This document shows, in pieces, positions 3,781 through 14,113 of a DNA stretch of 64,000 nt (position 1 is its first letter; each line of letters opens with the position of its first letter). A program made the position numbers and the translations under genes. The DNA is from Anaerolineales bacterium (lineage in GTDB: Bacteria > Chloroflexota > Anaerolineae > Anaerolineales > DRMV01): assembly GCA_026996855.1 (NCBI GenBank), contig JALWJZ010000103.1, forward strand, positions 1 to 64,000, given 5' to 3'. Below the pieces are notes generated by a model. The model did no database searches, was not told the origin of the DNA, and saw nothing but the letters and a program-made list of their open reading frames with translations.

Positions 3781-4611
3781 TTATACCGCGGCCCGCAGTC
3801 GTCGCACCAAGAGGATGAACGCCAGAAGCACCACGGCCAACCCAGCCCACAACCACATGTTGCCGCCGCCTTCGGTGCCAAAGCCCGTCTGGGGCAACTG
3901 CGTGTGCTCCGCCTGAGCCAGTGCCTGGGCGGTTTGCGTGGCTGCGGCCTGCAGGGCGGCCAGGTCCAGCGTAGGGGTGGGGGTCTGGTTCTGCAAGACC
4001 ACCACCGGCGTGGGGGTCGGCTCGCCGGCTTCGGGCGCGGCTTCCGTGGGTGCCGGCGTCGCCGCCTCGGGCGTGGCTGCAGCGGCCTGAGCCGTGGCAG
4101 TAGCGGCCTGTGCGGCTTCCGCCTGGGCGGTGGCCGTGAGCGCGGCCTGAGCCTCGGCCGTTGCAGTCAACGCGGCGGCAGCCTGGGCCGTGGCCGTAAG
4201 TTGTTCGGCCACCTGGGCCGTGGCCGTCATCCCCGCGGCCAGCACGGCCTGTTGCGCCGCGGTCTGGGTGATGGCCGCTACCTGCGTTTTCTGCGCGGCC
4301 TGTTGCCGGGGCCGTAAGACCAGCGCATACGTCCCCATGAGGCACAGGGCGGCCAGCATGAAGAGCACCAGCCCCACCACCGCAAAGATGAACATCCGAT
4401 TGCCCGGGGCCGCTTCCTCTTCAAGGACGTCCTCGGTGTCCTCGGCTTCTACGTCCGTATCTTCATAGACGTCCGTGGGAGGGAGTTCCGCCCCTTCGCC
4501 CTCCGGCGCCTCGGGATCGAAAGGCAGGAACCCGCCTTCCTCCTCTTGAGGGAGGTCGCCCATCCCCTCTTCACGGGGCTCCTCGTCGCGTGGGAACCAA
4601 CTCTCTGCCAT
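3781..4611 (-). CDS. Double-anchored Ala/Thr-rich surface protein with LPXTG-like sorting signal
   Basis: This 276-residue protein has four visible parts. Residues 1-70 are very acidic and low in complexity. Residues 73-95 form a transmembrane helix (MFIFAVVGLVLFMLAALCLM). Residues 105-230 are an Ala/Thr-rich repeat tract built on TATAQA. The C-terminus is a canonical-looking cell-wall sorting signal: LPQTG, then a hydrophobic helix and a RRLRAAV tail. It is the last gene of the minus-strand cluster that begins at 11789. LPXTG signals are sortase substrates in monoderm bacteria, but no sortase is in this window. A second membrane helix at the N-terminus is unusual for such substrates. Function is unknown. 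Confidence 0.75.
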   Translation of the reverse strand: MAESWFPRDEEPREEGMGDLPQEEEGGFLPFDPEAPEGEGAELPPTDVYEDTDVEAEDTEDVLEEEAAPGNRMFIFAVVGLVLFMLAALCLMGTYALVLRPRQQAAQKTQVAAITQTAAQQAVLAAGMTATAQVAEQLTATAQAAAALTATAEAQAALTATAQAEAAQAATATAQAAAATPEAATPAPTEAAPEAGEPTPTPVVVLQNQTPTPTLDLAALQAAATQTAQALAQAEHTQLPQTGFGTEGGGNMWLWAGLAVVLLAFILLVRRLRAAV

Positions 4612-4641
4612 CTCCGTTCTCCTCCTTTGGGGGGATGCACA

Positions 4642-5706
4642 TCAATCCACGATTTCCACGTTGTTGGCCGGTACTTCCACGAGTTGGTCGTCAATTTGCA
4701 ATTTTACCACATATCCCATGGCACCCGAAGGTAAAACGCGCGGGAATTCTTCAATTTCCATGACACGGCCCAGCCGACCTTGATACGGACCCCAAACCAC
4801 CCGAACCAGGGTTTCGGTTTCCAAGGCCCCGCCGGTGCGGGTGGGTTGAACCGCGTCGAAGGTCTCGTGCATGGAAAACAACCACGGCCACAGGCCGATG
4901 TCCCGCCGGGGAGGCTCCGCGGCCACCACCACATCCCGCTGGTGCAGTTGTTCCAACACCTGAATCGTTGACGACGAGAAGGTCGTGCTGCCAAACCCTT
5001 CCACAAGGAGCACCGGATAGGGCATCTCCAGAGCCACGGGCAGAAGGGAAGCCGGCAGAGCGGCCACCACCAGACCCTTGAGGGCAATTTCCCGGGCCTG
5101 GTGCAACGCCTCGGCATCCGCGACCTGCTCGGCGATCAACACGCTCCCGCGCAATTCGGGTGTGAGCAAAGGCGCGCTCAGGGCGCCGTAAGGGAAAATT
5201 TGCGGAAGAATCACGGCCGTGCCCACGTCCAGGCGCCCGTTGCCCCACACCCCCTGGACGAACAACCCCTGCCCGGAAACCACCGCGCCGTAAGGAGCCA
5301 GAAGTTCTTCCACGACGCCTTCCAGGCCCGCCAGCACTTGTTCTTGGGCCGTCAAACGTTGTAAGACGATGTATCCGGCTCCGATGTGCAGTACCCGACC
5401 GTCGATGGGTGCCACCAACTTGCGCTTGAACAGCCCCGGTCTTTCGGCCAGCACGTCGCCCTGGGCCACGGGTTGACCCAGGCGACAGACCACGTACTGG
5501 GCGGCCTTCTCCGGAGGCACCCGCAGAGCCTCGGTCACGGAAAGGATTTCCAAACGGTAGGTGCGTGGGCGGCGGGCGATCACGTCCTTGGGCGCCACCC
5601 GCTGGCCCAATTGCACCAGCACGCGGCCGGGCCGCCGTAACGTACGCCGCAACCGGGTGCGCACCAGGGCAAAGGCCTGACGGGCCGGACGGTAAAGCAC
5701 GGGCAT
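4642..5706 (-). CDS. Barrel-sandwich (biotinyl/lipoyl-like) plus KOW-like domain protein of the MutL-like cluster
   Basis: This 354-residue protein is unrecognised as a whole. The N-terminal half contains two segments of the type found in biotinyl/lipoyl-like barrel domains (GQRVAPKDVIARR, then GQPVAQGDVLAERPG and KRKLVAPIDGRVLHIG). The C-terminus has a KOW-like stretch (LVRVVWGPYQGRLGRVMEIEE). There is no Lys in the MKM context of a true biotinyl site, so a structural role is likelier than a cofactor role. The start is supported by GGAGG seven bases upstream. It sits 3 bp from the MutL-like gene, so the two are almost certainly co-translated. Confidence 0.6.
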   Translation of the reverse strand: MPVLYRPARQAFALVRTRLRRTLRRPGRVLVQLGQRVAPKDVIARRPRTYRLEILSVTEALRVPPEKAAQYVVCRLGQPVAQGDVLAERPGLFKRKLVAPIDGRVLHIGAGYIVLQRLTAQEQVLAGLEGVVEELLAPYGAVVSGQGLFVQGVWGNGRLDVGTAVILPQIFPYGALSAPLLTPELRGSVLIAEQVADAEALHQAREIALKGLVVAALPASLLPVALEMPYPVLLVEGFGSTTFSSSTIQVLEQLHQRDVVVAAEPPRRDIGLWPWLFSMHETFDAVQPTRTGGALETETLVRVVWGPYQGRLGRVMEIEEFPRVLPSGAMGYVVKLQIDDQLVEVPANNVEIVD

Positions 5707-5709
5707 GTT

Positions 5710-7452
5710 TCAAACCTCCTCACGTTTGAGCACATCCAACCAGCGGGCGCGGGCCTGCCAATGGCTTTCGGGGTCTTCGGGATACACCACCGGACGCCCG
5801 CGCGCATCGATGACCACCCCTTTCCAACCGCCCAACACCGTTTGCTTCAGCGTGCGGCCGCGCCCTGCACCCACATCGTACGCGCCCAGAGGTTCCACGA
5901 CGAGTTCCCCACGATAACCAGGGGGGAGGGGCAGCACCCGGAGTTCACCGGGCAATACGCTGACCGAAAGATGCTGGTTCCGCCCCCAGGAAAGGCGTAC
6001 CCGCAAAATCGGATTACGGCCTCGCATGGGGCTGCCCCACGGCACCACCACGGTGGCCAGAGGCAAGAGATGCGGCGAGCGCAGCATCTGCACCGGCACG
6101 AAGGGATTGACCTTGGCCAAAAGCCCCAAGGGGGCCAGCAAATGGGAGCCGTCCACGAACAGGGTCACGGTGCCCAACGGTTGCAACAAATCCAACGCGG
6201 TCAGAAGCAGGGCTTCGGGGTGGTTCAACGTGCTCCACACCCCGCCCCCCAGGAAGAGGGCACGATACACGGGTGGCAGGCCCCTACGCCGCCACCAGCG
6301 CCGGTCGCCGCGACCCAGGCCCTGCTCCAGCACCTGCTTCCCCACCTGATACGCCAGTCCCCGCTCCCACCAGGCATCGGTCTCGGTTTCTGGGAGCACC
6401 TCGGGATACACCGCCTTGTACAACAGAGCCTCTTCCGACCCCTCGAAACTCGCGACCCAACCTTTCAACTGCTCCACATCCACCTGGGGCAACACCTTCG
6501 ACAATCCATGCCCCACGCCCCGGGCGAAAGGCCGAATGCGTCCCTGAAGGGCGTCCCGGCCCCGGGCCACCATGCTCAAACCCGAACCCAAGTGCAGACC
6601 CAGGTAGCCGGACAGATGGTGATAAGCGCTCATCAGGCGCACCATACGATGCCAGGCCAGGGGAACGGGTTCGAAAGTGCGCACCACGTTCAGCAGCCCC
6701 TCCAGGCCAGGCAAGCGCCGCACCAAATGCTCCTTGTAAATCTCCTGCAAGGCCCTGCGCACGCCCACCAGGTTCTCCCTTTCCAACGAAGGCCGTACGT
6801 TATCGGCCACGTACACCTCGTATGCGGCTTGCAAATGCTGCTGCACCCGATGGGCCACCATGCGGTTGCCGGCATAAAGCACCAGGGGCCGGTCTTCTTG
6901 GGGGAAAAGGGGTGCGGCCATTTCCAAAACCTGCAAAAAGCCCAACAGCGCCTGACGCGCCCCTTCATCCGTACCGCCGGTGAAGAGAATCACATCGGGC
7001 GCGGCGTTGAGCAGTTGTTCCACGCGTTCCACATCGGAAAGGCCGTCGTTTACGTGAAAGCGCAGCACCGGCTCCACAGGGTACGGCTCCACGGCCCGCA
7101 ACGCGCTACGCAAAGAGAGGTTTTCCAAAATACCGATGAGGGCGATGCGCATGGGCGGCCCGGCGGAAACCAGCAGATGCACGCTGTCCACCCCTTCCCC
7201 CGTGACCTGAACCGGCGTGAGGATTTCTCCCTCTTGCAACAGGCGCAGGCCCGTAAGGGCTTCCAGGGCTTCCACCGCGGCCAGCACGCTTTCCCGCACA
7301 TCGTTCACCGGCGCTTCCCAGGTGGAAAGGGCCGTACCGATGCTCACGCACTGGTAACGGCCGTCCACCACGTCGAAAAGGAAGGCCCGGGTGAACACGT
7401 GGCCCAAATCCAGAACCAGGTACCGTTCCGTTTGCACCACCGAAGAAGGCAT
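5710..7452 (-). CDS. MutL/GlmL-like ASKHA-fold protein
   Basis: This 580-residue protein resembles the GlmL/MutL family, first seen beside the adenosylcobalamin-dependent glutamate mutase genes. ASKHA nucleotide-binding features are visible: LVLDLGHVFTRAFLFDV near residue 12 (phosphate-1 loop), VILFTGGTDEGARQ near 155, and LGLHLGSGLSMVARG near 285. No glutamate mutase (GlmE/GlmS) lies nearby. All neighbours are membrane or surface-type proteins. I therefore doubt a chaperone role for mutase here and infer an ATPase tied to the envelope cluster. The family is fairly sure and the role is open. Confidence 0.75.
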   Translation of the reverse strand: MPSSVVQTERYLVLDLGHVFTRAFLFDVVDGRYQCVSIGTALSTWEAPVNDVRESVLAAVEALEALTGLRLLQEGEILTPVQVTGEGVDSVHLLVSAGPPMRIALIGILENLSLRSALRAVEPYPVEPVLRFHVNDGLSDVERVEQLLNAAPDVILFTGGTDEGARQALLGFLQVLEMAAPLFPQEDRPLVLYAGNRMVAHRVQQHLQAAYEVYVADNVRPSLERENLVGVRRALQEIYKEHLVRRLPGLEGLLNVVRTFEPVPLAWHRMVRLMSAYHHLSGYLGLHLGSGLSMVARGRDALQGRIRPFARGVGHGLSKVLPQVDVEQLKGWVASFEGSEEALLYKAVYPEVLPETETDAWWERGLAYQVGKQVLEQGLGRGDRRWWRRRGLPPVYRALFLGGGVWSTLNHPEALLLTALDLLQPLGTVTLFVDGSHLLAPLGLLAKVNPFVPVQMLRSPHLLPLATVVVPWGSPMRGRNPILRVRLSWGRNQHLSVSVLPGELRVLPLPPGYRGELVVEPLGAYDVGAGRGRTLKQTVLGGWKGVVIDARGRPVVYPEDPESHWQARARWLDVLKREEV

Positions 7453-7567
7453 GGCGTTCGTTCCTCGAAGGCGAAAAAGGTTTCAAGCAAAAGGAAACAG
7501 ACGTTTTCCAAACTTCGTTATCGGACCTCGGGGCTTCCAGCCTGCTCAAAAGGCTGCATTTTCCGGG

Positions 7568-8218
7568 TCAGGGACCCAACAACAGGAAACGCAAAGTTTC
7601 CCACAAAAAGAGCACTCGCTCGGCCAGGGCCAGCAAGGCCGACTGGTACACCCGCAGGAACAACACCGCCAGGGTCACCACCACGACGAACCGGCCCACA
7701 ATGCGAAGCCCGCGGAAGGGATACTGCAAAGCCCGGGGCCAGTCTTCGTGTCGGCCGAAATGGAAGGCCACCAGAACGGCGATGACAAAGAGCCAACTCA
7801 ACATGCCCTGTGTAGGGGTGAGCCAGACGCGAAAGCCGCTCCATTCCTTCCAGGTGGCCAGCACCTGGGGGAAGAGGGTGCCCAGCACCACCCCCACCAA
7901 CAGGGTGGCCGCGGCCACACCCACCAAAAAGGCCAGCACCGGGGTGGCCAGCCCGCCGAAACGGGTCCCTCGCAAGAGCAGGAGCAACCCCAACGCCAGG
8001 GGAACCACCACCACCCAATGCCTCACCAGGAAGGGTTGAATCAATCGGGGGATGACGAAGGTGCGCATGACCACCGCGGCCGCATACCCCGCGGTGACGC
8101 CTACGAACACCGCGGCCACGCCCCGGAACAATTCGTGGTTTCCGAACAGGGCGTAACTCAGCACCCCTACGGTCATCACCAGGGCCACCACCAGGCCCGC
8201 CAGTTCTGCCAGGCCCAT
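7568..8218 (-). CDS. Polytopic membrane protein
   Basis: This 216-residue protein has about six hydrophobic helices and no recognised family motif. The ORF-track start lies too far upstream. The real start is the ATG at 8218, which overlaps the TAA of the preceding gene by one base (TAATG) behind GGAGGAG. Tight coupling to the zinc-ribbon gene suggests that the two proteins work together in the membrane. A gap of about 115 bp separates it from the MutL-like gene downstream. Confidence 0.65.
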   Translation of the reverse strand: MGLAELAGLVVALVMTVGVLSYALFGNHELFRGVAAVFVGVTAGYAAAVVMRTFVIPRLIQPFLVRHWVVVVPLALGLLLLLRGTRFGGLATPVLAFLVGVAAATLLVGVVLGTLFPQVLATWKEWSGFRVWLTPTQGMLSWLFVIAVLVAFHFGRHEDWPRALQYPFRGLRIVGRFVVVVTLAVLFLRVYQSALLALAERVLFLWETLRFLLLGP

Positions 8219-10398
8219 TATTGACTCCTCCGTCGGATGCGATGCACCACGGCCAGGGTCACCCCGCTGAGCATGGCCAGAACCAGGCCCAACATCATGG
8301 CGCCCTGCCACAGGCGATGCAAGTTCGCGGGCATGGGGTGTCCCGTCAGCCCGGCCAGGGCCTGGGCATCTTCAAAGCCGGATACCCACCCCCGGACCGG
8401 GTGGCCTAAGTACGGCTCCAGCACCGGGCCCAGTCCGGCGCTACCCACGAAAACCAGCGGGGTTTCCGGGGAAAGCAAGAGGCCCACCTGTTCCACCCAT
8501 TCCCGGGCCCGAATGGGCTGGTCCGTGAGCACCAAAAGCATGGCCGTGTCGCTCATCCCCTGCCATTGCGCCAGAGCCGGGTGCTCCCAGGGGTTGGGGC
8601 CTTGCACCGCGGGCGGGAAGGCGGCTTTAGGCCAGCGGGCCAGCATGGCCAGACCGGCCCGACCGCCGGGCAAGTACCCCAGCCAGATGATACGCTCCGG
8701 GGGCACACCCAATTCCGTGAGGAGCGCGTGGGCCAAGCCAGGGCCAAAGGGTTGGGTGCTCAACACCAGGTAATAGGGCTGACGCGCCTCCAACAGGCGC
8801 AGGGCCGGTTGGGCGGCCAAAGAAATCTCCGGGGCCCAGGCCGGCAAATAATCCACCGCCACCATGACCACCCCGCCTGGAGGCACGCTCTGGGCCGTGT
8901 AGAAGAACTCCTGCACCGCGGGCGAGGGTACCCGCGCCGGTAAACCGCGCCCCCATCCCCGTACCAACATGGCCAGCAAGCCCAACATAAAGGCCAGACC
9001 CACCACCAGCCGCCACAACCAGTACGGCATGGGGCGCTCCACGGCAGTACCGGCTTCACCGGGTGCCTCTTCGGTTTGCAGCAGGCGCTCCAGCCATTTG
9101 GCCCAGTACCGCTCTTCCTTGCGAAGGACCAATTTGAGCACGGGCTGCGTGGGCTGCACCATCTGCGTCAGCCGCGGCTCCACGGGTAGCACGTCGGGAA
9201 TCCCGGCCAGGGGCCCGGCCAGCACCGGTTCCAGCGGTTCCTCTTCTTCCTCCCCCGGAAGCACCACACCCTCGTCTTCACCGGCCAGCCGTTCGCGCAA
9301 CGCCCGCACCCATTCCGGGAGTTGGTCTTCCTGAACCGCCTGCGCCTCTTCCGCCTCCTCCGCGGGCCGGGATGCCGCGGCTTCTTCCAGCAGGGCTTCC
9401 AGTTCCTCTTCTCCCAACAACACCTCGGCCGATCCCGGCATCAACGGCGTCTCCCCAAGCGTCTCCCCGGAGCGGTCCTCGGTTACCACTTCGGGCCTCT
9501 CTTCCGCCTCCGGCGCCGCGGGCGGCCCCTCTTCGGCAGGGCTTTCCCCCACCAGGGAGGCCATCCAGTCGGGCACTTCGCCCGGCTCGAGCTCCGGCAG
9601 ACCCGCCTCCGCGGCTTCGGGCGCTCCCTCCGCCTCCGACGCCGCGGGCGGCCCCTCTTCGGCAGGGCCTTCCCCCACCAGGGAGGCCATCCAGTCGGGC
9701 ACTTCACCCGGCTCGAGTTCCGGCAGACCCGCCTCCGCGGCTTCGGGCGCTCCCTCCGCCTCCGACGCCGCGGGCGGCCCCTCTTCGGCAGGGCTTTCCC
9801 CCACCAGGGAGGCCATCCAGTCGGGTACTTCGCCCGGCTCGAGCTCCGGCAGACCCGCCTCCGCGGCTTCGGGCGCTCCCTCCGCCTCCGGCGCCGCGGG
9901 CGGCCCCTCTTCGGCAGGGCCTTCCCCCACCAGGGGGGCCGTCCAATCGACGGCGGCTTCCGAAGGAGCCGTGGGCGGTTCCTCGGCCGACGGAGTTTCG
10001 AGTGGAACGGGTTCTTCCGCCTCTGACAGGGTTCGTTCCGCTTCCCTGGCTTCCCGCCAGGCCTCCAGCGCAGCCCGGTCTTCGGCTTCCACCTCCGTTT
10101 CTCCCACTTCCTGCTCTACCCATTCCAGCAAACGTTCCTCGTCAATCGTCGTTTCGTCGGCTTCGGGAACCTCCGCCGTCTCTACGGATTCGACCTCCTC
10201 GTCGGCGAATTGCGCCAACCATCGGCGCAATTCTTCGTCCTCGGTCAAAGCCGAGGCAACCTCTGGGGCCGCGTCTCCCTTTCGAGGCAGGGATTCCGTC
10301 TCCCAAACGGGTTTCAGGGGAGCGCCACACTTTTCGCACTCCACCACATGAGGAGGGTTCTCATGTCCGCACCAGGTACAGCGCAATTCGTCTTTCAT
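8218..10398 (-). CDS. Zinc-ribbon protein with acidic tandem repeats and a membrane-anchored C-terminal domain
   Basis: About 726 residues. I prefer the ATG at 10398 (MKDELRCTWCG) over the ORF-track start. A short GGAAG precedes it, though the ATG at 10413 is also possible. A zinc ribbon opens the protein (C7, C10, C21, C24). A long Glu/Ala/Pro-rich region with 42-residue repeats follows. Then come a membrane helix (near YWLWRLVVGLAFMLGLLAML), an extracytoplasmic domain of about 220 residues, and a final helix with a basic tail. The repeat motif EVPDWMASL and a later LPEWVRAL are of the PDWL type I associate with Chloroflexota zinc-ribbon proteins. It may be a sensor or scaffold. No catalytic motif was seen. 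Confidence 0.7.
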   Translation of the reverse strand: MKDELRCTWCGHENPPHVVECEKCGAPLKPVWETESLPRKGDAAPEVASALTEDEELRRWLAQFADEEVESVETAEVPEADETTIDEERLLEWVEQEVGETEVEAEDRAALEAWREAREAERTLSEAEEPVPLETPSAEEPPTAPSEAAVDWTAPLVGEGPAEEGPPAAPEAEGAPEAAEAGLPELEPGEVPDWMASLVGESPAEEGPPAASEAEGAPEAAEAGLPELEPGEVPDWMASLVGEGPAEEGPPAASEAEGAPEAAEAGLPELEPGEVPDWMASLVGESPAEEGPPAAPEAEERPEVVTEDRSGETLGETPLMPGSAEVLLGEEELEALLEEAAASRPAEEAEEAQAVQEDQLPEWVRALRERLAGEDEGVVLPGEEEEEPLEPVLAGPLAGIPDVLPVEPRLTQMVQPTQPVLKLVLRKEERYWAKWLERLLQTEEAPGEAGTAVERPMPYWLWRLVVGLAFMLGLLAMLVRGWGRGLPARVPSPAVQEFFYTAQSVPPGGVVMVAVDYLPAWAPEISLAAQPALRLLEARQPYYLVLSTQPFGPGLAHALLTELGVPPERIIWLGYLPGGRAGLAMLARWPKAAFPPAVQGPNPWEHPALAQWQGMSDTAMLLVLTDQPIRAREWVEQVGLLLSPETPLVFVGSAGLGPVLEPYLGHPVRGWVSGFEDAQALAGLTGHPMPANLHRLWQGAMMLGLVLAMLSGVTLAVVHRIRRRSQ
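9494..9944 (-). repeat. 126-bp in-frame tandem repeat (about 3.6 copies) inside the zinc-ribbon gene
   Basis: The same block recurs with an exact 126-bp period (anchor points near 9551, 9677, 9803 and 9929). It encodes a 42-residue unit containing PGEVPDWMASLVGE and PAEEGPPAA. The copies are nearly identical at DNA level, pointing to recent expansion or gene conversion. Confidence 0.9.
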
Positions 10399-10440
10399 CC
10401 CATCACTTCCCATGAAAGGACATGGAAACGCCCGCAAACG

Positions 10441-11049
10441 TCATTCCTCGTAGGGGCGGTCCACTCCACCCAGCACCCGGAGGCCGGTGGCCATCAATCC
10501 CAAAGCCATGGCCAAAAGCAGCCCCCGAACGCCGGCCCGGGTCACCACGTGTTCGGCCCAATACCACACGGCTTCGGCCAGAAACACCGGCCCGATGCTG
10601 CCTCGTACGATGTCCAGAATCAGGAGAAGCGTCACCGCGCCCGCGAAAACCCAGGCCCAGGCGCGCTCCCGACGAAAAGCCATCCAAAGGCCGCGATAGG
10701 TCACCACAATGGCCAGCAAAGCCAGGAAAGCCGCTCCTCCGGGTATCAGGACGTACTCCAACAACCAGGGGGACTGGGGCCGAAGCAGGGTAAAGGCAAA
10801 AGCCGTTACCGCGGCCACCACCATGATGGCTCGGTAGGGCCAGCCGCTGCGCCGCTCCAAAATGAGTTTCCACTGACTTTGCAGGAAATAGAGGAAAGCC
10901 GCGAACACGGCCACGCCCGAGACCAACACGGCCCAATCCAAAAACAACCAGCGCAAACCTTCGAAGAGCGGCCCGGAGAACAGCAGGGCCAGCACCATGA
11001 CCGCGCCCACGCCTACGGCCACCCCCGTGCTGGGCGAAAGGCGTTTCAT
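10441..11049 (-). CDS. Polytopic membrane protein of the MutL-like cluster
   Basis: This 202-residue protein has about five to six predicted helices and no family I recognise. The start is the ATG at 11049, which overlaps the TGA of the upstream gene by four bases (ATGA) and is preceded by GGAGGT. The ORF-track start at 11112 lies inside the upstream gene. Position and coupling place it in the same transcript as the DUF6754-like and zinc-ribbon genes. Confidence 0.65.
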   Translation of the reverse strand: MKRLSPSTGVAVGVGAVMVLALLFSGPLFEGLRWLFLDWAVLVSGVAVFAAFLYFLQSQWKLILERRSGWPYRAIMVVAAVTAFAFTLLRPQSPWLLEYVLIPGGAAFLALLAIVVTYRGLWMAFRRERAWAWVFAGAVTLLLILDIVRGSIGPVFLAEAVWYWAEHVVTRAGVRGLLLAMALGLMATGLRVLGGVDRPYEE

Positions 11050-11789
11050 CCGCCACCTCCGAAAATCAGGTAGAGGGGCCCGCCCAGGAGCAACGCCAGC
11101 ACCAGAAGCCATCGGAAAACATCCTGGGCAAGCAGGGAAGCCAGGTGCGAGGCGCCGGCCCGGGCGTATGCCGGTGCCGCAAACACATCTTCACCCACCA
11201 GGGTTTCGTCCGCGGCCGCATACATCAACGCCTGGGCGCTCAGGTCTTCCGATGCGGTCAGTACCACCGGTGCGGTCTCCGTCAACAGGCCGATTTCCGG
11301 CCCAAAATGACCGACGGCCACGCTCACTTCCGTGCGCTCGGCCAGGGGAGTGCTGAGCACGCCCACCACGTAACCCCAGGGCATCAGGCCCATCAAATGC
11401 ATGCGTTCGGAACAGTCTCCAGACACGTGGTTTTCCCGGCACAAACGCCGCAGGGTGCTCCTCCCCAGGAAGTACAGCAAGCCATCGCCGGTGGTGGCCT
11501 CCGGGGGGCGGTCACCTCGCAAGGCAAACCGGCCCACAGCCTTCAAAGTGCTCAAGCCGGCCAGGCCCATGCCGCCTTCTTCGCCCCAAAGGGAACCCTG
11601 ACCCAACGCATAGTGCAGGGACCAACCCGCCTCCATGGCCAGCGCCAGGCCCCGGTACAGCGCGGTGAACAGGGGGATGGGACGCAACCGTTCGTACAGC
11701 CCCTCTTCCGTGAGGCCAAAACGGGCCAGCATGAGCACGCCGGCAAAAGCAACCATCCACAGCAGCGCCAACAATGCGCGCCAATCCAT
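11046..11789 (-). CDS. DUF6754-like membrane protein, first gene of the MutL-like cluster
   Basis: This 247-residue protein has an N-terminal hydrophobic helix, a soluble centre and a C-terminal membrane helix (DVFRWLLVLALLLGGPLYLIF). The central motif set (GDGLLYFLGRSTLRR, MGLMPWGYVVGVLS, VGHFGPEIGLL) resembles proteins annotated as DUF6754. That name comes from memory of the family and should be checked. It opens a seven-gene minus-strand run to 3781. A TATACT box on the minus strand at 11826-11821 may be its -10 element, with only a weak -35. Confidence 0.6.
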   Translation of the reverse strand: MDWRALLALLWMVAFAGVLMLARFGLTEEGLYERLRPIPLFTALYRGLALAMEAGWSLHYALGQGSLWGEEGGMGLAGLSTLKAVGRFALRGDRPPEATTGDGLLYFLGRSTLRRLCRENHVSGDCSERMHLMGLMPWGYVVGVLSTPLAERTEVSVAVGHFGPEIGLLTETAPVVLTASEDLSAQALMYAAADETLVGEDVFAAPAYARAGASHLASLLAQDVFRWLLVLALLLGGPLYLIFGGGG

Positions 11790-11930
11790 ACCGAACCTTC
11801 CCTACTTGCAGGTTACGTAAAGTATAACGCAAAAATTGAAGGCGCAAAAAGGACTTACGTGGCTCATTCGGCCCGTGCTGCGGTATACTTCTGGTGCTCA
11901 TCAACTTCCATACCGCAGGAGTGCATGACC

Positions 11931-12302
11931 ATGATTCAAGAGCCTATTCACGTGACCGATGCCGCGTTCGAGAAGACCGTGCTCAAATCCAAACTCCCCG
12001 TCATCGTGGATTTCTGGGCACCCTGGTGCGCGCCCTGCCGCTTCGTGGATCCCATCCTCAAGAAAATTGCCAAGGAGTACGCCGGGCGCCTCATCGTGGC
12101 CAAGGTGAACACCGACGAGAATCCCAAGTGGGCCGCCCACTTTGGCGTTCGGGGCATTCCCACCATGCTTTTCGTGGTCAACGGCCAGGTGGTTCACCAG
12201 CAAGTGGGTGCCCTGCCGGAACCCATCCTGCGCAGCCTGGTCGAAGAGTTCCTTCGAGTCGCAGAGCAAATGCAACAACAGAAGGAACCGCAACAGCAAT
12301 AG
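11931..12302 (+). CDS. trxA: Thioredoxin
   Basis: A 123-residue thioredoxin-fold reductant with WCAPC as the redox site, preceded by the usual IVDFWAP strand, and a cis-Pro loop (RGIPTML). The ORF-track start at 11145 is antisense read-through of the upstream operon. Two in-frame ATGs (11925, 11931) follow AGGAG. The second is better spaced. The C-terminus has a Gln-rich tail beyond the normal fold. It is divergent from the minus-strand cluster, with a TATACT box at 11884-11889 as a possible -10 element, and a strong terminator follows at once. Confidence 0.92.
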   Translation: MIQEPIHVTDAAFEKTVLKSKLPVIVDFWAPWCAPCRFVDPILKKIAKEYAGRLIVAKVNTDENPKWAAHFGVRGIPTMLFVVNGQVVHQQVGALPEPILRSLVEEFLRVAEQMQQQKEPQQQ

Positions 12303-12306
12303 CAGG

Positions 12307-12346
12307 AAACACAAGATGGGCAAGGGCATGCCCATCTTGTGTTTTT
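12307..12346 (+). terminator. Rho-independent terminator after thioredoxin
   Basis: A 16-bp perfect stem (AACACAAGATGGGCA arm) with a 6-nt loop is followed by a run of T. It lies 5 bp after the stop codon. Confidence 0.93.
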
Positions 12347-12496
12347 CGTAAACGCCATCGGATGAGCATGGGCGTGCATCGTTTCTTATACCCGATTCGA
12401 CCCGCATCCTTGGGAACACAAACAGTGCCCGACCTTCAAAAGGTGCCCAAGCCTTCCGAAACCCTCGAGTGACCGAGGGTAAGGAGACGGTCCATC

Positions 12497-13522
12497 ATGA
12501 CGGAAACATCCGGGGAATTCGTCGCATCCGCACTGCCTCCCAGGGAAAAGCAGGGCAAAGGCCGCAAACGCTGGTGGGTTTGGCTGCTTTTTTTCCTGGG
12601 TGGATTGTGCCTTTTGAGCCTGCCCCTGTTCACGTGCATGGCCTCCTGGGCTGCGCTGACGGGCAGCGCCGTGCCTTTGGGAGGAGGTGCCCCTCGCGTC
12701 TACCGGGAACCCGTACGGGGACCGGCCTTCGGCCCCGAAGTGGCCGTGGTCGTGCTGGAAGGCCCTATTGTATCCGCGCGGGGAAGCACCACCCGCCCCG
12801 TCATTGCGGCGGATCGAGTGGTGGATTTGTTGCATACGTTGAACACCTCCTCTCGCGTCCGGGCCGTGGTGCTGGCCATCAACAGCCCCGGCGGTGGCGT
12901 GGCCCCCAGCGAGCGGATTTACCACGCTTTGAAGGGCATGGACAAACCCGTGGTGGCCTACTTCCAAGACGTGGCCGCGTCGGGCGGGTATTACATCGCC
13001 ATGGGGGCCGAAGAAATCGTGGCCCATCCCAGCACCCTTACCGGTTCCATCGGTGTCATCGCCGTCTTCCCCCACGCGGAGAGATTGCTGGACAAGGTGG
13101 GCATCGGCGTGGTGGTGGTCAAATCCGGCCCTCACAAGGACATGGGGAGCATCTTCCGGGAAATGACCCCCGAGGAACGACAGCACATCCAGGACATCGT
13201 GGACGCCATGTACCTCAACTTCGTGGAAGTGGTGGCCCAGGGACGCAACCTGCCCCTGCAAGAGGTGAAGACCCTGGCCGACGGACGCATCTATTCGGGG
13301 GAACAGGCGCTGGAACTGGGCCTGGTGGACCGCCTGGGCTTCGAAGAAGAAGCCGTGGAACGAGCCGCGGCCCTGGCCGGGCTGACCCGAGAGCCCAAAG
13401 TGGTGCGTTACTACCCCGGATATTCCTCGTGGGCCTTGTTGTTCCAAAGCCAACAGCCCCGGCTTCCCTGGAACCTACAACTGCAACTGACCCCGGGCCT
13501 GTACTATCTGTGGTTGCCTTGA
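12497..13522 (+). CDS. sppA: Signal peptide peptidase SppA, S49 family
   Basis: A 341-residue membrane protease that degrades signal peptides left in the membrane. One membrane helix spans about residues 26-47. The S49 core follows: INSPGGG near 129, the nucleophile Ser162 in AASGGYY, TGSIGVI near 182, and the general-base Lys209 in VKSGPHKD. The length matches the short Bacillus-type enzyme rather than the tandem E. coli form. AAGGAG sits about 10 bases before the ATG. The downstream DUF6391-like gene begins 40 bp later and may be co-transcribed. Confidence 0.93.
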   Translation: MTETSGEFVASALPPREKQGKGRKRWWVWLLFFLGGLCLLSLPLFTCMASWAALTGSAVPLGGGAPRVYREPVRGPAFGPEVAVVVLEGPIVSARGSTTRPVIAADRVVDLLHTLNTSSRVRAVVLAINSPGGGVAPSERIYHALKGMDKPVVAYFQDVAASGGYYIAMGAEEIVAHPSTLTGSIGVIAVFPHAERLLDKVGIGVVVVKSGPHKDMGSIFREMTPEERQHIQDIVDAMYLNFVEVVAQGRNLPLQEVKTLADGRIYSGEQALELGLVDRLGFEEEAVERAAALAGLTREPKVVRYYPGYSSWALLFQSQQPRLPWNLQLQLTPGLYYLWLP

Positions 13523-13561
13523 AAACGGCTGGAACACCCTGAAGGTGGAGGAGAAAAGTCC

Positions 13562-14113
13562 ATGCGTCCCCCTGCCTGGCTTCAACGATTTTTGGAAACG
13601 CCGCCCCTGGCTCAAATCCGGCGCAATCACGGCCTGGAACATGCCACCATTCACCTGCTGGCCCAGCGCTATCCCGGTCGCTTCTTGGCCGGACACTCGG
13701 ATACCACGGGCTTCTGGCTTTGGGGCGACGTGCCGCAGGAAGCCGTGGAAGAAGCCGTGCAGGAAGCCCTGGAGCGCCTGCGCCGGGGCGAAACCTACCT
13801 GGCTGTGCACCCCGGCTGCGGCACCAATTACCTGACGATGAGCGCCTTGAGCGGCATGGCTGCCATGGCCGCCCTCAGCGGTACCGAACGCTCCTGGCGG
13901 GCCCGCTGGGAACGCTTCCCCTGGTTGCTCCTTGCAGTGCTGGTCGCGCTCATGGCCGCCCAGCCTCTGGGTCGCTGGCTGCAGACCCACATCACCACCA
14001 GCGGCGATGCCCACGGTCTGGAAGTGGTGGCCGTCAAGCGCCTGGAACGCCAGGGGCGCCCCGTGTACCGGGTCCAGACCCGTTACGCCGGCGCTTCCCC
14101 TGCGGGCGCATGA
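13562..14113 (+). CDS. DUF6391-like membrane protein
   Basis: A 183-residue protein with the motif RRNHGLEHATIHLL near residue 20, which I associate with DUF6391 proteins. A conserved-looking HPGCGTNYL follows near residue 83, then two hydrophobic stretches (MSALSGMAAMAAL; FPWLLLAVLVALMAA). His, Cys and Glu in the motifs could bind metal, but no function is known. GTGGAGGAG lies upstream of the ATG. It follows sppA closely. Confidence 0.65.
   Translation: MRPPAWLQRFLETPPLAQIRRNHGLEHATIHLLAQRYPGRFLAGHSDTTGFWLWGDVPQEAVEEAVQEALERLRRGETYLAVHPGCGTNYLTMSALSGMAAMAALSGTERSWRARWERFPWLLLAVLVALMAAQPLGRWLQTHITTSGDAHGLEVVAVKRLERQGRPVYRVQTRYAGASPAGA

What the first reader, a model, noticed from the sequence alone, without database searches (positions are those of the whole stretch)
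3781..11789. Uncharacterised seven-gene envelope cluster built around a MutL-like ATPase
All seven minus-strand genes are close or overlapping. They encode membrane proteins, a zinc-ribbon repeat protein, a barrel/KOW protein, an LPXTG-like surface protein and a GlmL/MutL-like ASKHA protein. The last is annotated by homology with glutamate mutase accessory proteins, yet no mutase is present. The gene set looks like an envelope-located system with its own nucleotide-binding protein. Its function is not known to me.
Basis: inference. Interest (0 to 1): 0.66.

Follow-up and report, generated by a model that had tools for sequence, protein, structure and literature searches.

The report
Unnamed conserved bacterial cell-envelope gene machine
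Seven neighbouring genes encode a conserved but never-described membrane system of Chloroflexota bacteria: a four-protein membrane core also found in other bacterial phyla, plus an add-on actin-fold protein that probably docks on it from inside the cell; what the system does is still unknown.

Summary
Seven tightly packed minus-strand genes (3781-11789) form one operon. The same order recurs across more than 30 families of Anaerolineae and in Chloroflexia. The MutL-like gene (E) and the DUF6754 gene (A) co-occur in 70 of 150 class genomes (Fisher 4e-28).

It is not really 'built around' MutL. The core is a four-gene membrane module (A-B-C-D) that also occurs, without E, in Bacillota, WOR-3, Cloacimonadota and Hydrothermota. 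E (GlmL-family ASKHA protein), F (barrel-sandwich/swivel/KOW) and G (LPxTG-like tether) are a second module. E is not tied to glutamate mutase: the mutase is absent from this genome and occurs in 3 of 150 class genomes. E scores 67 bits against a GlmL cut-off of 475.

Best mechanism (inferred): E/F is a cytosolic platform that docks on C's cytoplasmic tail, which carries a repeated P-D-W-L peptide (796 seen, 28 expected, up to 63 per protein), as PilM docks on PilN or FtsA on FtsN. In this genus E has lost a catalytic Asp yet is conserved, which fits scaffolding better than catalysis. The cargo or signal of the A-D core is unknown. No described system matches.

The parts
11046..11789 (-). Gene A: DUF6754 (PF20539); TM, cytoplasmic Rossmann-like alpha/beta domain, TM
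   Evidence: Pfam 4.8e-11; model pLDDT 93; positive-inside counts 0.33 before / 3.96 after TM1
10441..11049 (-). Gene B: membrane protein with about six TMs, no known family (listed ORF starts at 11112; likely ATG at 11049, overlapping A's stop)
   Evidence: conserved across phyla
8218..10437 (-). Gene C: N-terminal zinc ribbon, acidic cytoplasmic tail with Trp motifs, TM, extracytoplasmic alpha/beta domain, TM
   Evidence: PF13240 2.3e-6; C-terminal domain homologous to the short stand-alone C of Bacillota/WOR-3
10324..10380 (-). Zinc ribbon of C (CxxC-x10-CxxC, residues 20-37)
9802..9834 (-). P-D-W-M motif copy 1 in the tail of C (GEVPDWMASLV)
   Evidence: motif statistics
9676..9708 (-). 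P-D-W-M motif copy 2
9550..9582 (-). P-D-W-M motif copy 3
9295..9327 (-). Variant motif (DQLPEWVRALR)
8227..9048 (-). TM - extracytoplasmic domain - TM of C (the part shared with other phyla)
7568..8221 (-). Gene D: membrane protein with about six TMs, no known family (likely ATG at 8221, overlapping C's stop)
5710..7452 (-). Gene E: GlmL/MutL-family ASKHA protein with a C-terminal extension (about residues 459-580); phosphate-2 Asp replaced by His287
   Evidence: PF13941 5e-45; motif check; tree
4642..5706 (-). Gene F: soluble protein, barrel-sandwich halves, swivel-like alpha/beta domain, C-terminal KOW
   Evidence: model pLDDT 91; Foldseek NusG 2xhc 3.6e-5, UPF0107 2hi6
3781..4611 (-). Gene G: TM anchor, Thr/Ala/Pro-rich linker, LPQTG, TM, RR tail
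   Evidence: five sortase-like genes in genome

Best explanation
The operon encodes one membrane complex made of two modules. SHOWN by conservation: (1) a membrane core of two multi-TM proteins (B, D), a membrane-anchored cytoplasmic Rossmann-like domain (A, DUF6754) and a membrane-anchored extracytoplasmic alpha/beta domain (C), inherited as an ordered A-B-C-D unit across several phyla; (2) an add-on of a GlmL-family ASKHA protein (E), a soluble barrel-sandwich/KOW partner (F) and an LPxTG-type tether (G), present in Chloroflexota and (E, F) in Symbiobacteriia. INFERRED: E/F is a cytosolic platform recruited to the membrane by the many P-D-W-L peptides in the cytoplasmic tail of C, working as PilM does with PilN and FtsA with FtsN. 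Nucleotide binding by E and the high valency of the tail would cluster core complexes and switch them through A; G would tie the cluster to the cell wall through sortase. What B/D move or what C senses outside the cell is not determined.
For: E and A co-occur in 70 of 150 class genomes (81 with E, 72 with A; Fisher 4e-28); 53 pairs lie on the same strand 2.6-8.2 kb apart. Order A-F contiguous in 27 of 37 loci; A-B-C-D in the same order in most non-Chloroflexota loci without E/F. Topology: K+R counts put A's domain inside and C's domain outside; WOR-3 copies of A carry a signal peptide and an apparent FnIII-like region before TM1 (sequence, my reading), so the N-terminus is outside. Tail motif: 796 seen versus 28.3 in shuffles over 82 tails; 16.5 versus 0.39 per 1000 aa in other proteins; consensus E-[ED]-[LVI]-P-D-W-L-x-x-L. 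In four genomes without A, B, D or C's outer domain nearby, a short motif-bearing TM protein is still encoded immediately upstream of E-F (L077, L078, L222, L223). E keeps ASKHA phosphate-1, phosphate-2 and adenosine glycines in the family, but this genus replaced the phosphate-2 Asp under purifying selection (dN/dS about 0.27-0.37), which suits a scaffold. Analogy: PilM-PilN and FtsA-FtsN bind short cytoplasmic tails of bitopic proteins (PMC7613929).
Against: No interaction is shown; docking is inferred from gene association. C tails lack the motif in Symbiobacteriia (L178, L185) and in family f60 (L198, L199) although E and/or F are present there, so the tail may bind something else or be a later addition. 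F was not detected in several Chloroflexia loci. B and D have no homologue of known function and A's fold hits are weak (best E 8e-3), so the activity of the core is open.
Confidence: 0.36

Rival explanations
1. E is a reactivase/chaperone of a cobalamin-dependent mutase, like GlmL, and only happens to be encoded in this operon.
For: E belongs to the GlmL/MutL superfamily; the genome has methylmalonyl-CoA mutases; in loci L044 and L045 a MeaB-like and a B12-binding small-subunit gene lie divergently next to A, with similarly placed genes in L042.
Against: Glutamate mutase (full-length PF06368) in 3 of 150 class genomes; two of these (G040, G072) carry an additional, separate canonical GlmL. 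E scores 67 versus a cut-off of 475 for GlmL. Cluster E of Chloroflexota falls outside the canonical clade (100/99). Strong linkage with A.
Confidence: 0.1
2. The operon is a membrane-integrity or peptidoglycan-coupled stress system: E/F links wall synthesis (PBP, LPxTG tether) with membrane repair (PspA).
For: PspA/IM30 lies downstream in 7 loci, solute-binding-like genes in 6 loci, HEAT-repeat genes mostly just upstream in 9; in L079 and L220 E-F sits between a class A PBP and PspA; LPxTG-like G.
Against: These neighbours are frequent but not universal, are absent next to the operon in this window, and A-D in other phyla does not keep them.
Confidence: 0.22
3. A-B-C-D is a transporter or channel gated through the Rossmann-like domain of A (RCK-like), with E/F only a regulator.
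For: Two multi-TM proteins plus a cytoplasmic Rossmann-like domain; KtrA RCK domains are among the better partial structural matches of A (TMt 0.43, rmsd 4.1, E 0.09); core present without E/F in several phyla.
Against: Structural matches are weak and many other Rossmann proteins score alike; B and D show no homology to each other or to transporters.
Confidence: 0.2
4. E substitutes for MreB or FtsA in these bacteria.
For: Same ASKHA superfamily; membrane-linked operon; PBP neighbour in two loci.
Against: MreB and FtsA matches are present in all 150 class genomes including this one.
Confidence: 0.03
5. The genes are an accidental housekeeping neighbourhood with no joint function.
For: E-F-G can sit apart from A-D (L236).
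Against: Fisher 4e-28 co-occurrence and conserved order over most sampled families and several phyla.
Confidence: 0.02

Closest known systems
GlmL/MutL, glutamate mutase reactivating chaperone (PF13941, NF040745, TIGR01319)
   Same: E has the same ASKHA core over its first ~460 residues
   Different: Far below the curated GlmL cut-offs; extra ~120-residue C-terminal region; encoded with envelope genes; no glutamate mutase in most genomes; separate clade; phosphate-2 Asp lost in this genus
PilM-PilN (type IV pilus) and FtsA-FtsN (divisome)
   Same: Works-like analogy: cytosolic ASKHA protein expected to dock on a short motif in the cytoplasmic tail of a membrane protein (PMC7613929)
   Different: No sequence relation found by family searches; the tail carries up to 63 motif copies; partners A, B, D and F have no pilus or divisome counterpart
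DUF6754 (PF20539)
   Same: Gene A is a member
   Different: No paper found that mentions it; here it is shown to be one part of an A-B-C-D module
NusG/Spt5 KOW proteins and RnfC/NqrA barrel-sandwich domains
   Same: F carries both domain types
   Different: F's combination with a swivel-like middle domain, and its partners, match neither transcription factors nor Rnf/Nqr complexes
KtrAB RCK potassium transporter
   Same: Cytoplasmic Rossmann-like domain beside membrane proteins; partial structural match of A
   Different: A's domain is itself flanked by TMs; B/D unrelated to KtrB by sequence searches; weak match

Membership tests
GlmL (methylaspartate mutase accessory protein) | Score above the curated equivalog cut-off (NF040745, 475 bits; TIGR01319, 204 bits) | tested here: not met
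   66.7 and 51.4 bits for window E; Symbiobacterium E 214 and 153 bits
GlmL (methylaspartate mutase accessory protein) | Co-occurs with glutamate mutase E subunit | tested here: not met
   Absent from own genome; full-length in 3 of 150 class genomes against 81 with cluster-type E
MutL superfamily (PF13941) | Above Pfam gathering score over the whole model | tested here: met
   154.5 bits versus 27, positions 1-447 of 450
Active ASKHA ATPase | Phosphate-1 and phosphate-2 Asp and adenosine glycines | tested here: not met
   Phosphate-1 Asp15 and glycines kept; phosphate-2 Asp (35 of 39 sequences) is His287 here, His and Tyr in two congeners
DUF6754 (PF20539) | Above gathering score | tested here: met
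   42.7 bits versus 27
Sortase-anchored LPxTG protein | LPxTG, hydrophobic segment, basic tail, and a sortase in the genome | tested here: met
   LPQTG-TM-RR; five sortase-like genes. Curated LPXTG model not reached (12.9 versus 47); cleavage untested
PilM/PilN-like docking pair | ASKHA protein binds a cytoplasmic peptide of a membrane partner | not testable with these tools
   Only indirect: repeated motif and gene linkage of the motif protein with E-F
Type IV pilus, divisome or secretion system | Pilin, traffic ATPase, secretin or divisome genes in the operon | tested here: not met
   No such family matched among the seven genes
Known anti-phage defence system | Match to PADLOC models | tested here: not met
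   No match up to E 0.1 for the seven window proteins or for Bacillota A and C

The most novel reading that the evidence does not exclude
A previously undescribed, multi-phylum membrane machine (A-B-C-D) which in Chloroflexota acquired an actin-fold platform (E/F) recruited by a highly repeated P-D-W-L peptide array and tied to the wall by a sortase-anchored tether: a multivalent, cluster-forming envelope complex unlike known pilus, divisome, secretion or transport systems.
Probability: 0.3. Interest if true: 0.82.

Novelty: categorically new. Interest (0 to 1): 0.62.

Why it matters
A gene set conserved in order across several phyla usually marks a real cellular machine, and none of its four core membrane proteins has a described function. 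It explains why Chloroflexota genomes without glutamate mutase can carry a MutL/GlmL-like gene: naming it after the mutase would mislead. The repeated tryptophan peptide gives a direct, cheap binding test. The complex also occurs in complete genomes whose lengths match, from memory, cultured Chloroflexus, Roseiflexus and Herpetosiphon strains, so its location and role could be tested in culturable filamentous bacteria whose envelope and gliding biology are poorly understood.

Tried and rejected
Single-protein scan of genome contigs with E: no relatives. First DUF6754 alignment too diverse for a pattern scan; a subset worked. E as a replacement for MreB or FtsA: rejected, both ring in every class genome. 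E tied to glutamate mutase: rejected. B and D as paralogues, or A and C as paralogues: no profile-profile support. Defence system: no PADLOC match. Solved-structure profile searches for A, B, C and D gave nothing firm (glutamate racemase for C at E 0.036 only); a lysozyme chain matched by F's profile over 26 residues is taken as spurious. Foldseek of A gave only generic Rossmann-like matches. Papers: none found on DUF6754 or on this cluster. No sigma-70-like promoter found by consensus, and terminator-like hits were below the shuffled mean. Functional meaning of neighbouring genes in Bacillota and WOR-3: inconsistent. The 363-aa 'C' call in L236 is a compositional false positive (an M48-peptidase-like protein).
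Full report
WHAT IS THERE. Seven minus-strand ORFs occupy 3781-11789, confirmed by a codon-usage gene caller. In transcription order: A 11789-11046, B 11049-10441, C 10437-8218, D 8221-7568, E 7452-5710, F 5706-4642, G 4611-3781. A/B overlap as ATGA and C/D as TAATG; E and F are 3 nt apart. A is DUF6754 (PF20539), C starts with a zinc ribbon, E is MutL/GlmL superfamily (PF13941), F matches barrel-sandwich (RnfC_N) and KOW models, and B, D and G match no family. G ends LPQTG-TM-RR, and the genome has five sortase-like genes. E is the only PF13941 protein found in the genome.

CONSERVATION IN CHLOROFLEXOTA. In 150 genomes of the same class, cluster-type E occurs in 81, A in 72, both in 70 (Fisher 4e-28); in 53 the two are on the same contig and strand, 2.6-8.2 kb apart. 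Of 37 A-bearing loci, 27 were called as A-B-C-D-E-F contiguous and the rest in the same order with one or two calls missing. E is found in 25 of 26 close relatives counting this genome, including all 16 high-quality ones. F was not detected in several of those. Within the genus, dN/dS to G433 is about 0.27-0.39 for A, C, E and F (0.48 for D, 0.22 for a partial G), so the genes are under purifying selection.

TWO MODULES. A collection-wide scan with a DUF6754 alignment returned Bacillota, Cloacimonetes, WOR-3, Hydrothermota and NPL-UPA2 loci, and one contig labelled Thermococci. Most have A-B-C-D in the same order, sometimes twice in one locus (L163, L168, L181), with no E or F; here C is about 275 aa and consists only of the TM-outer domain-TM part. 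E and F join in Symbiobacterium-like loci (L178, L185) and, not adjacent to each other, in L164. Conversely, E-F occurs without A-B-D nearby in L077, L078, L079, L219, L220, L222 and L223, and E-F-G lies apart from A-D in the congener G432 (L236). So A-B-C-D is the broad core and E-F(-G) an add-on; 'built around MutL' is not the best description. A small extra gene, H (~95 aa, no Pfam match), lies just upstream of A in 125 fetched loci (partly overlapping sets) but was found neither in this window nor in this genome.

TOPOLOGY AND FOLDS. Positive-charge counts place A's domain in the cytoplasm (0.33 K+R before, 3.96 after TM1) and C's domain outside (3.08 before TM1, 2.73 after TM2; 48 sequences each). 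WOR-3 copies of A carry a signal peptide and an apparent FnIII-like segment before TM1 (sequence, my reading). A was modelled at pLDDT 93 as TM-Rossmann-like-TM; structural matches are generic (best E 8e-3; KtrA RCK TMt 0.43). F was modelled at pLDDT 91; its parts match NusG/Spt5 KOW, NqrA/RnfC barrel-sandwich and a UPF0107 swivel domain. B and D have no detectable relatives among solved structures.

THE TAIL OF C. In Anaerolineae and Chloroflexia, C has a long acidic cytoplasmic extension, mostly beginning with zinc ribbons. It is packed with P-x-W-[LMVI]: 796 copies against 28.3 in shuffles, up to 63 in one protein, density 16.5 per 1000 aa against 0.39 in other proteins of the loci; consensus E-[ED]-[LVI]-P-D-W-L-x-x-L. 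The window's C has three exact GEVPDWMASLV copies and several variants. Where A, B, D and the outer domain are missing nearby, a short motif-bearing TM protein remains directly upstream of E-F (L077, L078, L222, L223). This ties the motif to E/F. Counter-evidence: Symbiobacterium and family f60 have E and/or F but no such tail on C.

E IS NOT A GLUTAMATE MUTASE ACCESSORY. Glutamate mutase is absent from this genome and full-length in only 3 of 150 class genomes; two of these (G040, G072) have their own canonical GlmL in addition. Window E scores 66.7 bits against the GlmL cut-off of 475. In the tree, the Chloroflexota cluster-type E group separately from canonical GlmL (100/99), with Symbiobacterium E on the canonical side of the midpoint root. 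The published role of MutL/GlmL is a chaperone in reactivation of glutamate mutase (PMC4682846). The phosphate-2 Asp, kept in 35 of 39 sequences, is His here and His or Tyr in two congeners, although the gene is conserved. That argues for binding or scaffolding in this genus rather than ATP turnover.

MECHANISM. The best-supported reading is a cytosolic ASKHA platform (E with F) that docks on the repeated tail peptides of C and clusters or switches the A-B-C-D core, with G as a wall tether. It is modelled on PilM-PilN and FtsA-FtsN, where an actin-like protein binds a short cytoplasmic tail (PMC7613929). Conservation and modularity are shown. Docking, switching and tethering are inferred. The substrate or signal of the core is unknown. 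Neighbour genes hint at membrane integrity or wall coupling (PspA in 7 loci, class A PBP in 2, HEAT-repeat genes in 9), which I keep as a rival.

NOVELTY. No functional Pfam, NCBIfam or PADLOC model and no paper in the library describes the system. E works like known ASKHA adaptors at most by analogy; it is a member of the MutL superfamily but not of GlmL. The four-protein core has no described relative that I could find.

Noticed in passing
upstream of A in L046:3641-3937, L171:6925-7218, L242 and ~120 other loci: Gene H, a ~95-aa protein without any Pfam match (consensus ..GLxxPAxxFLExxxPLxFLGSQ..), is an eighth member of the operon in most relatives but was not found in this genome.
   Followed up: yes
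L197:5344-5838, L178:9387-9839, L185:9250-9774, L190: A small membrane-anchored protein (possibly PH-like, my reading) precedes H/A in seven Chloroflexota and Bacillota loci.
   Followed up: partly
window 5710-7452; L235; L236: The genus of the window replaced the phosphate-2 Asp of the ASKHA protein by His or Tyr while keeping the gene under purifying selection.
   Followed up: yes
L236 (G432) 10290-13934: In a congener, E-F-G sits downstream of ABC-permease-like genes and away from A-B-C-D.
   Followed up: partly
L079 and L220: E-F lies between a class A penicillin-binding protein and PspA/IM30, followed by a solute-binding-like protein.
   Followed up: partly
L007-L017: A second kind of MutL-domain protein in the class sits in ~900-1390-aa open frames; the first ~500 residues of the L007 copy matched no Pfam family.
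   Followed up: partly
L175, L177, L187 (WOR-3, Hydrothermota): The A-B-C-D module is followed by a signal peptidase II gene and then a ~340-390-aa protein.
   Followed up: no
L168: Two A-B-C-D copies are separated by an ARPP-1 (PF20208) gene in WOR-3.
   Followed up: no
L174:3369-4103: A DUF6754 gene with H on a short contig labelled Thermococci; possibly a misbinned contig.
   Followed up: no
window 11936-12302 (+) and 12497-13522 (+): A thioredoxin-like ORF and a signal-peptide-peptidase-like S49 protease lie divergently next to the operon.
   Followed up: no
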